Shown here: in pieces, positions 5,030 to 63,346 of the stretch | Position numbering within the stretch: position 1 is the first letter of the stretch | Layout of the letters: each line of letters opens with the position of its first letter | From: Symbiodinium natans | Taxonomy: Eukaryota > Sar > Dinophyceae > Suessiales > Symbiodiniaceae | Length of the DNA stretch: 64,000 bases | Assembly (NCBI GenBank): GCA_905221605.1 | Contig: CAJNDS010002113.1 | Location: forward strand, 957,001-1,021,000 | Reading direction: 5' to 3' | Notes under the pieces: model-generated | What the model was told of the DNA's origin: nothing | Database searches by the model: none | The model's input: the letters and a program-made list of their open reading frames with translations, nothing else | Translations under genes and position numbers: made by a program

Positions 5030-5110
5030 GCCGCCGGCCAGAGCCTAGAGGAGGAGCTGGCAAAGCTCCGCAAGACCTCCGAGGAGGCTCGGCAAAGCGA
5101 TGTGGCGGAT
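5030..5110 (+). CDS. exon, coiled-coil protein
   Basis: Follows TTTTCGTGCAG and reads 27 codons in phase 0 with 'SLEEELAKLRKTSEEARQ', a charged heptad-like helix. It ends at GTGTCG. It is nearly duplicated by the exon at 8779, so the protein probably grew by exon duplication. First exon seen of a + strand series; the gene start was not found. Confidence 0.65.
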
Positions 5111-6027
5111 GTGTCGGGGCTTTAATAGGGGCTTCAACAACCCACATAATCTGGGGGCCTGGAAAATTAGAATAGGTTTTCTTCTGGTGGGGGGGGGGGG
5201 GGTATGATAGTATAAGTATAGAGGGGCAATAAGGGGATGTTATTAGCAATTATTCCGAGCCCTATAGTATACACAAGGATCCTGCTGTTGGGGTATCAGG
5301 GCCCCGATAAGCGTTTACGTGGCTTTTCGGGCCCTTACTTCAGGGAGTTTAGGGTTCCGGGTTTGGGGTTTTAGGGTTTAGGGTTTAGGGTTTAGGGTTT
5401 AGGGTTTAGGGTTTCAGGATTTTTTATAGGGTTCAGGGAGTGTAGGGCTTCAGGGCATTCCGAGTTTCAGGGCTTTGGGGAGTTGAGGGCTTTGGGGGTT
5501 TAGGGAGTGTGGGGCTTTATGGAGTTTGGAGGGGTCGGTGGGGGGGTAAGTAGGGAAGTTTAGGTAAGCTTAGGGAGTCTTAAGGAGTAGTAGAGAGTAC
5601 CCCCCCCCCCAAACCAACCCTAAACCCTAAACCCTAGACCCTAGACCCGAGACCCGAGACCCTAGACCCTAGACCCCAGACCCCAGACCCCAGACCCCAG
5701 ACCCCAGACCCCAGACCCCAGACCCTAGACCCTAGACCCTACTTTAAAGAACCTATAGTCTCCCGGGGTGCCAGCTTGCGAAGCGCCCTCGGGATTTTGC
5801 TTCGACTCGACGGGTTCTATGGAGCGATGCTTGAGCTCTAAGCACTTGCTGAATCTCAATGGGTGTAGTGTATAGGGTTTAGGGTTAGGGTTCAGGGTTT
5901 AGGGTTTGGGCTTTCGCGTTTAGGGTTTAGGGTTTAGGGTTTAGGGTTTAGGGTTTAGGGTTTAGGGAAGGTTTTAGGGAACCCTAAACCCTCAACGCTC
6001 GCTCCCAGCTTCTGAGCCATCCTGCAG

Positions 6028-6088
6028 GCGCTGGCGCAGGAGGCCGGGCGGGCGCAGGCGGCCGAAAAGGCACTCCAGGACCGTGAGG
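6028..6088 (+). CDS. exon, coiled-coil protein
   Basis: Acceptor CATCCTGCAG, then 'ALAQEAGRAQAAEKALQDRE', rich in Ala/Glu/Gln. It is followed by a degenerate donor and a TTTAGGG array. Confidence 0.6.
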
Positions 6089-6501
6089 GTTGTAAAGGGG
6101 GTTTAGGGTTTAGGGTTTAGGGTTTAGGGTTTAGGGTTTAGGGTTTAGGGTTTAGGGTTGAGTGAGGTCTTCCCTATTCCTTATACGCCCTACACCCCCA
6201 ATACGAAGGCAAATTCGACAGCCAGACGCCCAGATCCAGCAAGTTCTGGGAGGGGGCAGGGCGCGGTGAACCAGTGTAGTTCTCTCATGATGGCTTCTTT
6301 TTTGTGTGGTCCACCCTAAACCCTAAACCCTAAACCCTAAACCCTAAACGCTAAACGCTAAACGCTAAACGCTAAACCCTACACCCTACACCCTACACCC
6401 TAAACCCTAAACACTAACCCTAAACCCTAAACCCTAAACCCTAAACCCGAAACCCGAAACCCTAAACCCTAAACCTTACAAGGGCACGTAGAAGATCATA
6501 G

Positions 6502-6582
6502 CTCGGCCCCGCGATGTGGAAGAGGACAGCCTTGACGATGCTCAGAAGGCCAGTTCGGCGCTAGCTGAGAAGGCCGGGACTG
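6502..6582 (+). CDS. exon, coiled-coil protein
   Basis: Acceptor GATCATAG and donor GTTAAA. The helical-type frame includes 'DVEEDSLDDAQKASSALAEK'. The upstream flank is CCCTAAA and the downstream flank TTTAGGG. Confidence 0.5.
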
Positions 6583-6781
6583 GTTAAAGGCTGGGTTTAG
6601 GGTTTAGGGTCTAGGGTTTAGGGCTTGGGGCATAGGGTTTAGGGTTTAGGGCTTAGGGCTTAGGGCTTAGGGTTTAGGGTTTAGGGTTTAGGGCTTAGGG
6701 CTTAGGGTTTAGCAATTTGTGTTACCGAAAGCTCGAAACCCTAAACCCCGAGCCCTAAAACCGAAGAGGGTTGATTCGGCT

Positions 6782-6882
6782 GAGACACACACACACACAC
6801 ACCCACACACCCACACACCCACACACCCACCCGCCCAACCACCCACCCACCCACCCACGCACGCACGCACGCACGCACCCAC
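6782..6882. repeat. CA-rich microsatellite
   Basis: (AC)n passes into CCCA and CGCA tetramers inside an intron. The open frame across it is low complexity. Confidence 0.8.
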
Positions 6883-7431
6883 CGGAGCCTACACGGCCCT
6901 GACGGGGCTCCCTAAGCCTCTATTTCCAAGCCACCCTAAACCCTAAACCCTGCCTGAAGGCTCAGGATTTAGGCTTTAGGGTTTGGGGTTACAAGAACCC
7001 CAAGTAGGACTAAAAGTTGACTATGCTCGGTTGGGCTAGAGTGACCCGAAACTTGTATCTACCCATGAACTTCCAAGAAGTCCCCAGGAGGCCCAGAGCC
7101 CTTAATGTGGTTTAGGGTTTAGGGTTTAGGGTTTAGGGTTTAGGGTTTAGGGTTTAGGATCCTGGTACTGACAGGGTGGGCCTGGATAGTGTTGCCAAAG
7201 AGCTGGCAAGTTGTCCCAAACCCGAAACATCCCCAAACCATCTCGAAGCCCCAAAGCCCTCAACGCCAAACCCTGGTCCTAAACCCTAAACCCTAAACCC
7301 TAAACCCTAAACCCTAACCCTAAACCCTAAACCCTAAACCCTAAACCCTAAACCCTAAACCCTAAACCCTAAACCCTAAACCCTAAACCCTAAACCCTAA
7401 ACCTCGGCCGTGCCTGCCAAGACCTCGAAAG

Positions 7432-7479
7432 CAGGTGCAGGAGGCCCAGACGAAGGCGGAGCAGGCAGAAGCCGAGGCG
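7432..7479 (+). CDS. 48-bp micro-exon, coiled-coil protein
   Basis: Reads QVQEAQTKAEQAEAEA between a CCCTAAA array on the left and GTTGAGGG plus TTTAGGG on the right. The start may lie a few bases upstream. Confidence 0.55.
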
Positions 7480-7732
7480 GTTGAGGGTTTGGAGTTTAGG
7501 GTTTAGGGTTTAGGGTTTAGAGTTTAGGTGCGCCCTTACCCCGCACCCCTATAATATTGGCAGTTCTCTAGATACTTCTTCCCTTTTGAGTCCAGCCAGC
7601 AAACCCAAACGCTTCTGTCCCTACTGAAGAGCTCGAAGCTTCAACCCTAAAGCGTTCTCTGAAATCCCCTGTTAGGAGTCAGTCCAAACCCTAAAACCCT
7701 AAACCGAAGCCCTAACGCGAACTCCGCGGCAG

Positions 7733-7807
7733 GCAGCCATAGCCCAGGAATCGGTCTCGCACGCCGCAGCCTCCTCCGAAGCAGAGAAGAAGGCGCACGA
7801 AAGTGAG
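7733..7807 (+). CDS. exon, coiled-coil protein
   Basis: Acceptor CCGCGGCAG, then 25 codons containing 'AQESVSHAAASSEAEKKAHE'. The intron starts directly with GTTTAGGGTTTAGGG, so the telomere word itself supplies the GT donor. Confidence 0.65.
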
Positions 7808-61698: not shown

Positions 61699-61832
61699 GT
61701 ATGTATGTATGTATGTATGTATGTATGTATGTATGTATGTATGTATGTATGTATGTATGTATGTATGTATGTATGTATATTACTTATTTATTCATTCATG
61801 TATTTATTTATTTATTTATTTATTCACTTATT
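61699..61832. repeat. (GTAT)n then (TTTA)n microsatellite
   Basis: About 20 GTAT copies followed by TTTA/TTCA tetramers. Tyr/Val/Cys/Met frames are artefacts. Confidence 0.95.
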
Positions 61833-61974
61833 TGTTTACATGTACACATGTTATACGTATGTAGGCCAAAATCCTGTTCAATTTTCATGTGGTCCACAAG
61901 TCTAAAGTAGGAAGTTGCAAGTCGTCAAGAACCTTCCTCCCCAAACCCTAAACCCCAAAGCCCTGAACCCCGGC

Positions 61975-62140
61975 CTAAACCCTAAACCCTAAACCCTAAA
62001 CCCTAAACCCTGAACCCTGAACCCTGAACCCTGAACCCTGAACCCTGAACCCTGAACCCTGAACCCTGAACCCTGAACCCTGCACCCTAACCCTAAACCC
62101 TAAAACCTAAACCCTAAACCCTAAACCCTAAACCCCATCT
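61975..62140. repeat. CCCTAAA array with a pure CCCTGAA block
   Basis: Roughly a dozen consecutive CCCTGAA units sit between CCCTAAA units. Confidence 0.95.
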
Positions 62141-62316
62141 GGGCGACTAGATTTGGGGTCCCTTGTGTTCGTGGGGGTCCCTTGTTTTCGTAAATCTCCC
62201 AAAGTGCCCCTAAACCCTAAACCCTAAACCCTAAACCCCTAACCCCTAAACCCTAAACCCTAAACCTTAAACCCTAAACCCTAAACCCTAAACCCTAAAC
62301 CCTAACTTCTCTAAGG

Positions 62317-62384
62317 AGTGCCACATGAAGAGTGCTGTGGAGCTCAAGCACCATGCGGAGACGCGCCCGCATTTAACGCCGCAG
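62317..62384 (+). CDS. exon, unrecognised protein
   Basis: After ACTTCTCTAAG it reads 'ECHMKSAVELKHHAETRPHL' then TPQ, then GTCTTT. It could precede the ABC1 exon in the same gene. Confidence 0.55.
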
Positions 62385-62682
62385 GTCTTTCCCTTTTAGG
62401 GTTTAGGGTTTAGGGTTTAGGGTTTAGGGTTCAGGGTTCAGGGTTTAGAGCTTCGGGTCTGTCGAATGAAGCTACCCAAGTGTCTTTTTGGTACCCATGT
62501 CACTATCCATGGACTTCTCTTGGTAAGGCCCGAGGGGATGTTCACGCCTCCAGGGCGAGCTCGGAAGCGGTAGGTGTGAGAATTATGGCCGTCACAACGA
62601 GGTCACATAAGTATATTGAGCAATATTGAGCTGCGCTTGAGGACCTAAACGAGTGGCTGAATGAAAGCAGCATTCAAGCACG

Positions 62683-62735
62683 CAGGTCCTCCAACGGCTC
62701 ATCTTGAAAACTGAGAAGGATGGAACGCGCCTCAA
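62683..62735 (+). CDS. exon candidate
   Basis: After AAGCACGCAG it reads VLQRLILKTEKDGTRL, running into CCCTAGA words. Confidence 0.4.
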
Positions 62736-63145
62736 CCCTAGACCCTAAACCCCAAAACCGAAACCCTAAACCCTAAACTCTAAACCTTAAACCCTAAACC
62801 CTAAACCCTAAACCCTAAACCCTAAACGCCCCTAAACCCTAAGTCCTAAAGCCCCATTAGCCTGTGAATCCTGAACAGTTGGAGCAAGTGTTTCGGCTTA
62901 GTACTCAGGGCCACAATAGCCCGAAACCCCAGCATCCGTGAGGCGTTGAGGTCTCGACCTTGCACCCTAAACCCTAAACCCTAAGTCCTAAACCCTACAC
63001 CCTAACCCTAAAACCTAAACTCTAAACCCTAGACCCTAAACCCTAGACCCTGAACTCTACACCCTAAACCCTAAACTCTAAACCCTAAACCCTAAACCCT
63101 AAACCCTGAACCCTAAGCCGTAAACCCTAAACCTTGCCGTCCAAG

Positions 63146-63232
63146 GAAGACGCCAAGGGCCTCTTTATCAAGGCTGGCCAGGTCATGAGCGCCATGGTCG
63201 GCACGCTGCCGGACGCCTTCACCAAGGAGTTG
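63146..63232 (+). CDS. exon of an ABC1/ADCK (UbiB-type) atypical kinase-like protein
   Basis: After TGCCGTCCAAG it reads 'EDAKGLFIKAGQVMSAMVGT' then LPDAFTKEL. The K-x-G-Q motif (KAGQ), followed about ten residues later by LP and a short helix, is the hallmark of the N-terminal extension of ABC1/ADCK/UbiB proteins. Many of these act in mitochondria or plastids in quinone or lipid metabolism. Only this exon is clear; kinase-core exons would lie beyond the window. Confidence 0.7.
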
Positions 63233-63346
63233 GGATGTAGGGATATAGGGTCGGAGGGTTATGTGGTTTTCGGGTTCTACTGGGTTTAGGGTTTAGGGTT
63301 GAAGGTTTGGGGTTTGGGGTTTAGGGTTTTAGGGCAGTATGGTCGG

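What the first reader, a model, noticed from the sequence alone, without database searches (positions are those of the whole stretch)
5030..63233. Introns bracketed by inverted telomere repeats
Many exons have CCCTAAA repeats just before the acceptor and TTTAGGG repeats from the donor onward. In several cases the donor GT belongs to GTTTAGGG itself (7808, 12144, 17874, 30638, 38560, 52463). Each intron RNA would thus start with UUUAGGG repeats and end with CCCUAAA repeats, able to pair and bring the splice sites together. The pattern recurs over ~58 kb and at least several genes, so it looks like a systematic way of making or keeping introns. Possible sources are telomerase repair of breaks, telomere-seeking retroelements (Penelope-like), or an introner family with telomeric ends.
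Basis: partly seen in the sequence, partly recalled or inferred. Interest (0 to 1): 0.92.

Follow-up and report, generated by a model that had tools for sequence, protein, structure and literature searches.

The report
Exons capped by telomere repeats
In a dinoflagellate alga many small exons sit between telomere repeats that point outward like the two ends of a miniature chromosome, which suggests that telomere-type DNA repair or selection has repeatedly reshaped its introns.

Summary
The core observation is real. The window comes from a 759-Mb genome of a Symbiodiniaceae-like dinoflagellate. In 18 introns defined only by protein homology (15 of an ABC1/ADCK1 kinase gene, 3 of an MFS transporter gene), the first 200 nt hold 94 TTTAGGG against 5 CCCTAAA, and the last 200 nt hold 75 CCCTAAA against 10 TTTAGGG. 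Eleven of 18 have the full bracket. Genome-wide, CCCTAAA-to-TTTAGGG pairs 90-120 nt apart are 2.2 times commoner than the reverse order (260,354 against 118,934). The arrays are enriched near exons; deeper in introns they have no polarity.

Three corrections apply. GTTTAGGG is not the donor in the verified kinase gene (0 of 15; donors are GA, GC and one GT). Pairing across an exon is about as strong as pairing across an intron. The pattern is patchy: three short introners and a chaperonin gene lack it, and a weak motif-blind exon test did not replicate on seven new loci.

Best reading: introns born as TIR introners later gained telomeric arrays at the exon-side ends of breaks, like healed chromosome ends. 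One exon has an isolated extra copy that includes both arrays. The mechanism is inferred; splicing selection is a serious rival.

The parts
57703..57810 (+). MFS transporter exon (homology-defined)
   Evidence: tblastn with P0121, P0122, P0127; P0121 72% identical to the spliced query
57811..57914 (+). 104-nt intron that looks like a TIR introner (CTTGGGGAC...GTCCCCAAG, read by eye), no bracket
   Evidence: insertion relative to P0121/P0122/P0127; part repeated at 59048-59106 at 98%
57915..58554 (+). MFS transporter exon
58555..58667 (+). 113-nt introner-A intron with a CCCTAAA-type array inside; polarity does not fit the bracket
58668..58737 (+). MFS transporter exon, followed by 14 TTTAGGG
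59554..60180 (+). last MFS transporter exon
60647..60725 (+). ABC1/ADCK1 kinase exon; the gene continues to 73832, i.e. into L002 (L002 position = coordinate - 64000)
   Evidence: tblastn with P0002
61116..61166 (+). ABC1 kinase exon, bracketed
62313..62360 (+). ABC1 kinase exon, bracketed
63146..63229 (+). ABC1 kinase exon (KGLFIKAGQ...), bracketed
61946..62299 (+). CCCTAAA array (21 exact units, interrupted) before the exon at 62313
62395..62429 (+). TTTAGGG array (5 units) after that exon
62743..63131 (+). CCCTAAA array (19 exact units, interrupted) before the exon at 63146
52772..52825 (+). Apparent first ABC1 exon, separated from the rest by the MFS gene; CCCTAAA on both sides
   Evidence: tblastn with P0002, E 2e-4; counts; left out of the 18-intron count
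38868..38976 (-). Isolated extra copy of an ABC1 exon (original at L002 9160-9234) with both telomeric arrays; homology stops where the arrays stop
   Evidence: 95.65% over 92 bp; alignment including arrays
63346..63458 (+). Introner A copy without a telomeric array
34863..34980 (+). Introner A copy without a telomeric array
5030..12144 (+). Coiled-coil-like gene, inferred: short open exons, several of them bracketed (for example 8800-8846, 10944-11017, 12060-12137)
   Evidence: sequence, motif-blind predictions; no homolog tested

Best explanation
The genome belongs to a Symbiodiniaceae-like dinoflagellate in which at least some introns arose as small TIR introners. Later, breaks in introns were healed with telomeric repeats. 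The 3' DNA end on each exon side was extended with TTTAGGG, as telomerase does at a chromosome end, and the two sides were then rejoined, often with other DNA between them. Each exon therefore carries telomere arrays pointing outward: CCCTAAA upstream and TTTAGGG downstream, whatever the gene's strand. The RNA consequence, UUUAGGG near donors and CCCUAAA near acceptors, would be a by-product. Shown: the polarity, the near-exon enrichment, introner copies with and without arrays, and one exon copied with its arrays. Inferred: telomerase, the breaks, two-sided healing, and the order of events.
For: Polarity on both sides of exons in homology-defined genes (C5, G5, C3, G3 = 5, 94, 75, 10). Clusters within 200 nt of exons 32 concordant to 5 discordant (p 7e-6), interior 32 to 28. 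Density 40-44 per kb within 50 nt of exons on the concordant side, 0-20 per kb per strand beyond 200 nt, so more than the mere loss of badly oriented arrays. The C-array-exon-G-array order is the order of a linear chromosome. Introner A occurs without an array (63346, 34863) and with a TTTAGGG array in place of its inner segment just inside the left TIR in ABC1 intron 73231-73415, which keeps TIRs and a GAAG direct repeat. By reading, the array's far end joins at a GGGTT that the array-less copies also have, in register with the array, as reported for telomeric insertions at breaks in mammals (PMC7215372, passages). Head-to-head joins GGGTTTAGGG-N{0,12}-CCCTAAACCC number 8,380 genome-wide, reversed control 0 (the opposite order was asked but not answered). 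One exon was copied about 34 kb away, inverted, with homology ending at the array ends.
Against: Two-sided healing should put G and C arrays next to each other; usually hundreds of bases lie between them, so filler or later insertions must be assumed. Six of 32 informative intron ends in the homology set have the wrong polarity. The register of array starts is only weakly biased towards GGGTTT, and G-rich flanks could explain it. No telomerase RNA-derived sequence at junctions was looked for, and no empty orthologous intron from a relative could be fetched. A chaperonin gene and several loci show few or no arrays, and the motif-blind test failed on seven new loci.
Confidence: 0.38

Rival explanations
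1. Splicing selection and RNA structure. Telomeric arrays spread through introns in any orientation, and those harmful to splicing were lost. TTTAGGG before an acceptor offers a decoy UUUAG|G in every unit, whereas CCCTAAA has no AG or GT; G-runs after a donor may enhance splicing of the weak GA and GC donors; paired ends may help to define introns or exons.
For: Acceptor-side CCCTAAA (11 of 18) and donor-side TTTAGGG (15 of 18); donors are mostly non-canonical GA/GC; strong duplexes are possible; the interior is unpolarised. That G-runs act as intronic enhancers is recalled, not looked up.
Against: Loss of badly oriented arrays alone does not explain the several-fold enrichment near exons. 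CCCTAAA after a donor adds no decoy site, yet it is rare there. Pairing across exons is about as strong as across introns, which would favour exon looping as much as intron removal.
Confidence: 0.27
2. In-place expansion from seeds. Introners carry telomere-like G-rich and C-rich stretches near their two ends in inverted orientation, and replication slippage or unequal exchange expanded them, giving the polarity automatically.
For: The array-less introner A copy at 63346 contains GGGTTCTGGGTTCCC in its left half and AACCAACCCC further right; in one intron a G array sits at the first place, in another a C array next to the second (by reading).
Against: In four kinase introns the array begins only 5-7 nt after the donor, where an 18-nt TIR should lie. 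The arrays are overwhelmingly the exact telomere unit (774 TTTAGGG against 31 TTTGGGG for the heptad between two units, eight sources), more than drift of a seed would suggest. Other simple repeats are far less prominent (impression from reading, not counted).
Confidence: 0.2
3. An introner or other transposon family whose terminal inverted repeats are telomeric arrays, so that new introns arrive bracketed.
For: The arrays are inverted repeats near both intron ends and start only 5-7 nt after the donor in four kinase introns. Telomere-bearing transposons exist in ciliates (PMC4724952, passages).
Against: No shared body seen in a self-comparison of 84 kb; the recognisable short introners lack brackets; direct repeats at the splice junctions are only slightly longer than with shuffled partners (3.65 against 3.17 nt, 63 of 2000 shuffles reach it).
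Confidence: 0.12

Closest known systems
Symbiodiniaceae/dinoflagellate introners (TIR, short target duplications)
   Same: TIR introners are present; by reading, the donor comes from the target duplication (GA) and the acceptor from the element, as described for S. microadriaticum (PMC9860276, passages)
   Different: The passages seen do not describe telomeric ends; here the telomeric arrays are on other introns or were added inside an introner
Introns with inverted repeats at both ends (Amoebophrya introners; Prorocentrum cordatum)
   Same: Inverted repeats near both intron ends, proposed in Amoebophrya to form hairpins (PMC7789003, PMC10666404; passages)
   Different: There 8-20-nt repeats; here long arrays of one telomeric motif shared by many introns, so pairing is not intron-specific
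Short interstitial telomeric sequences inserted at DNA breaks (mammals)
   Same: Telomeric arrays inserted at breaks, possibly by telomerase, with small deletions and in-register joins (PMC7215372, passages)
   Different: In human and horse their placement is described as compatible with random insertion; here the arrays are very many and, where tested, polarised away from exons
Oxytricha TBE transposons
   Same: Telomeric repeats in inverted orientation in the element's terminal repeats (PMC4724952, passages)
   Different: There the element ends with the outward polarity of a chromosome; here the exon, not the intron, has it, and no transposase-bearing body was found

Membership tests
TIR introner | Terminal inverted repeats at intron ends | tested here: met
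   Three of 18 introns (57811-57914, 58555-58667, ABC1 73231-73415), by reading. TIRs were not searched for systematically in the other 15; one of them (70473-70857) holds an introner-A left end near its 3' end.
TIR introner | Target-site duplication that supplies a splice site | tested here: inconclusive
   GAAG, GAC and GAT at the three introners (GAC by reading); over all 17 resolved introns direct repeats average 3.65 nt against 3.17 shuffled (63 of 2000)
TIR introner | Many introns share one sequence | tested here: not met
   For the bracketed introns: only dispersed repeats shared within 84 kb. Introner A itself has several copies.
Interstitial telomeric sequence | Internal tandem arrays of the organism's telomere unit | tested here: met
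   1,788,098 and 1,787,600 matches to two units, reversed control 257 and 280. That the chromosome ends are TTTAGGG comes from a review of other dinoflagellates (passages); the ends of this genome were not examined.
Interstitial telomeric sequence by break repair | Empty orthologous site showing a break or deletion | tested here: inconclusive
   Introner A copies without an array serve as a paralogous empty site for one array; no orthologous site was available
Telomere-bearing transposon | Repeated body with transposase between telomeric ends | tested here: not met
   No common body in this sample; transposase genes were not searched for, and the genome as a whole was not searched

The most novel reading that the evidence does not exclude
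Exons in this genome behave as telomere-capped cassettes. Breaks in introns are healed on the exon sides by telomerase, and the resulting arrays act as joining points by which single exons are copied and moved, a telomere-based exon shuffling.
Probability: 0.17. Interest if true: 0.95.

Novelty: new variant of a known kind. Interest (0 to 1): 0.77.

Why it matters
How introns are gained and lengthened is an open question, and dinoflagellates gain them fast. A widespread, polarised mark of telomere repeats around exons would tie intron growth to telomere-type end healing, or show that a simple repeat has been recruited into splicing. It would also help to locate exons from DNA alone and give a natural test of how repeats with opposite splicing potential are tolerated on each side of an exon. 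If exon copies with arrays prove common, it is a new route of exon shuffling.

Tried and rejected
Telomeric-ended introner family: self-comparison of 84 kb with telomeric units masked found only dispersed repeats and one exon-cassette copy (the same one, eight sources). Foldback origin of array pairs: variant-unit profiles are little more alike across exons (0.28, n 11) or introns (0.38, n 11) than between unrelated arrays (0.23, n 174), and unit counts correlate 0.38 across exons and -0.04 across introns; inconclusive. Start register of arrays: weak excess of GGGTTTA (36 of 141 with four or more units), explicable by flanks. Open-frame content does not separate C-to-G segments from shuffles; GC and a codon score do in the first set (p 6e-4) but the codon score only weakly in the new loci (p 0.077). 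Motif-blind exon prediction in 13 sources: 59 concordant to 16 discordant ends (score above 8), 32 to 8 (above 10; 85 exons, 125 of 170 ends without motif), 1 to 2 (above 15; 29 exons, 55 of 58 ends without motif); outside the window's contig 28 to 11 and 13 to 4. On seven new loci it gave 16 to 12 (above 8) and 4 to 4 (above 10), so it did not replicate. Its sensitivity in cross-validation was 2 of 15 exons at score 10. Pfam on nine kinase exons: three matched ABC1 in profile order (one over the cut-off, two under it), six matched nothing. Rfam on 124 kb: no match. A bracketed segment at L002 5688-5743 has no counterpart in the homologs and is probably not an exon; I had included it in the query, which also lacked the exon at 70858. 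Symbiodinium natans was considered because of its assembly size (0.76 Gb), but the best proteins found are only 75% and 72% identical, so the species is left open. Rows left out of the 18-intron count: the 52826-60646 interval (C 8, G 0 at its 5' end; C 2, G 0 at its 3' end), because the MFS gene lies in it, and two upstream MFS introns known only by reading (one with CCCTAAA at both ends, one with 11 TTTAGGG at the donor and none at the acceptor). L014 is all N and was left out.
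Full report
WHAT THE WINDOW IS. Two consecutive TTTAGGG units occur 1,788,098 times on one strand and 1,787,600 on the other, against 257 and 280 for the reversed control. About 30% of the window with its two 10-kb neighbours is telomere-like at up to 3 mismatches in 14. A spliced ABC1/ADCK1-type kinase finds Durusdinium trenchii (67%) and Symbiodinium CCMP2592 (75%) as best named relatives; a spliced MFS transporter finds a sequence labelled 'Symbio' (label cut in the listing) at 72% and Effrenium voratum at 59%. 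So it is a Symbiodiniaceae-like dinoflagellate; the species is open.

THE OBSERVATION. The window holds 534 TTTAGGG and 548 CCCTAAA. Runs mostly alternate, with C-to-G gaps around 110 nt and G-to-C gaps broad. Shuffling the run labels within each sequence gives 29.9 +- 4.2 C-to-G gaps of 80-140 nt; 65 are seen in 13 sources. In seven loci fetched later, 9.4 +- 2.4 are expected and 25 seen. Neither was reached in 5000 shuffles. Genome-wide counts of array pairs 90-120 nt apart are 260,354 in the C-to-G order and 118,934 in the G-to-C order; these count unit pairs, so one exon can count several times. In 264 kb held locally the C-to-G excess runs from 90 to 180 nt and is gone by 250 nt, and at 0-12 nt the G-to-C order is commoner (5 to 1).

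TEST WITHOUT THE MOTIF. Proteins of relatives were aligned to the DNA to fix exons independently. Pfam on nine kinase exons taken singly recognised ABC1 in three, in profile order (27-60, 100-128, 182-202), one above the cut-off. Of 18 introns, 15 are TTTAGGG-dominant in the first 200 nt (half the intron if shorter), 2 CCCTAAA-dominant and 1 empty; in the last 200 nt 11 are CCCTAAA-dominant, 4 TTTAGGG-dominant and 3 empty; 26 ends fit and 6 do not (p 5e-4). By clusters in the kinase gene (16 intervals, including one later dropped), 32 fit and 5 do not within 200 nt, while deeper in the introns it is 32 and 28. Density falls from 40-44 per kb within 50 nt of an exon to 0-20 per kb per strand beyond 200 nt. 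The arrays are therefore both enriched near exons and polarised there.

WHERE IT FAILS. The chaperonin gene in L021 has short introns; none of the four gaps between five segments that I recognised holds the motif (the first segment is confirmed by PF00118, the others by eye). Motif density per 10 kb ranges from 1 to about 270 (an all-N stretch left out). A motif-blind codon-score exon predictor gave 32 fitting to 8 misfitting ends in 13 sources at score above 10, with 10 to 0 in L013, where all five predicted exons lie on the minus strand of another contig; above score 15 it was 1 to 2 with 55 of 58 ends empty. It found only 2 of 15 known exons in cross-validation and gave 16 to 12 on the seven new loci. 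The spacing result replicated there; the exon-prediction result did not. C-to-G segments are richer in G+C (0.606 against 0.535; new loci 0.586 against 0.523) and in codon score (p 6e-4; new loci p 0.077).

SPLICE SITES. In the kinase gene donors are GA (8), GC (6) and GT (1) of 15, acceptors AG, mostly before G. TTTAGGG starts 5-58 nt after the donor in 14 of 15 introns. CCCTAAA ends 4-34 nt before the acceptor in 10 of 15; in one it ends 165 nt away and in four it is absent. None of the 15 donors lies in GTTTAGGG. Of the three MFS introns one has a GA donor, one had a tied solution on GTTTAGGG and one was unsolved.

INTRONERS AND ARRAYS. An element of about 110 nt, here called introner A, begins CTTGGTAGCCCAGTGGTA and ends much like TTACTGGGCTACGAAG. 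It occurs without an array at 34863 and 63346, appears by reading to form an intron at L003 3654-3830, and forms the last kinase intron but one (73231-73415) with a TTTAGGG array in place of its inner segment right after the left end. In the MFS gene (58555-58667) a CCCTAAA-type array sits in its middle. The three recognisable short introners are among the ones that do not fit the bracket. This suggests, from few cases, that introns are born without brackets and gain arrays later.

EXON COPY. The kinase exon at L002 9160-9234 has a second copy at 38877-38968 on the other strand, 95.65% identical over 92 bp. The alignment continues through the CCCTAAA array on one side and the TTTAGGG array on the other and stops where the arrays stop. 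It is the only clean case in the eight sources compared; the genome-wide search for more did not complete.

HOW IT MOST LIKELY WORKS. CCCTAAA-exon-TTTAGGG is the order of a linear chromosome with a telomere at each end. If a break in an intron is healed on both exon sides by telomeric synthesis and the ends are then rejoined, every exon ends up capped this way regardless of strand, and arrays deeper in the intron have no rule. That predicts both the donor side and the acceptor side. Splicing selection explains the acceptor side well, because TTTAG|G is a decoy acceptor, and the donor side only with an added enhancer effect; loss of bad arrays alone does not explain enrichment near exons. Seed expansion within introners explains two cases directly but not arrays that begin 5-7 nt after a donor. 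RNA pairing of intron ends is possible but pairing across exons is about as strong.

WHAT IS KNOWN. Seven literature searches that joined telomere terms with introns, introners or dinoflagellates listed no title on telomere arrays at intron ends; one search listed 20 of 58 papers and one search listed 12 of 3,160, so a paper could have been missed. Three more searches served other points. Only open-access papers are held; I did not see the main dinoflagellate introner study itself, only citations of it. Papers were seen as search listings or as passages, none in full.

Noticed in passing
52772-52825 and 54400-60200: The apparent first ABC1 exon is separated from the rest of the gene by an MFS gene on the same strand: a nested gene or a displaced exon.
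   Followed up: partly
L002 5688-5743: A C-array/55-nt/G-array bracket between two kinase exons with no counterpart in homologs, so brackets also occur without a known exon.
   Followed up: partly
5040-5091 and 8789-8840: Two exon-like stretches of the coiled-coil gene are 83% alike over 52 bp: possible exon duplication within the gene.
   Followed up: no
55151-57449: Minisatellite-like region with units of roughly 110 nt, part inverted, many units carrying a single TTTAGGG; unrelated to the brackets.
   Followed up: no
22633, 44558, 45211, 53913, 59178, 71361: A MITE-like repeat of about 110 nt scattered through the region (71361 is in L002).
   Followed up: no
L015-L019 (C1992): A GroEL-like gene with a 682-codon open frame on a contig of this assembly, unlike the split genes here; possibly organellar-type, transferred or contaminant.
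   Followed up: no
974-1412 and 3041-3477: A 439-bp inverted duplication at 95% identity.
   Followed up: no
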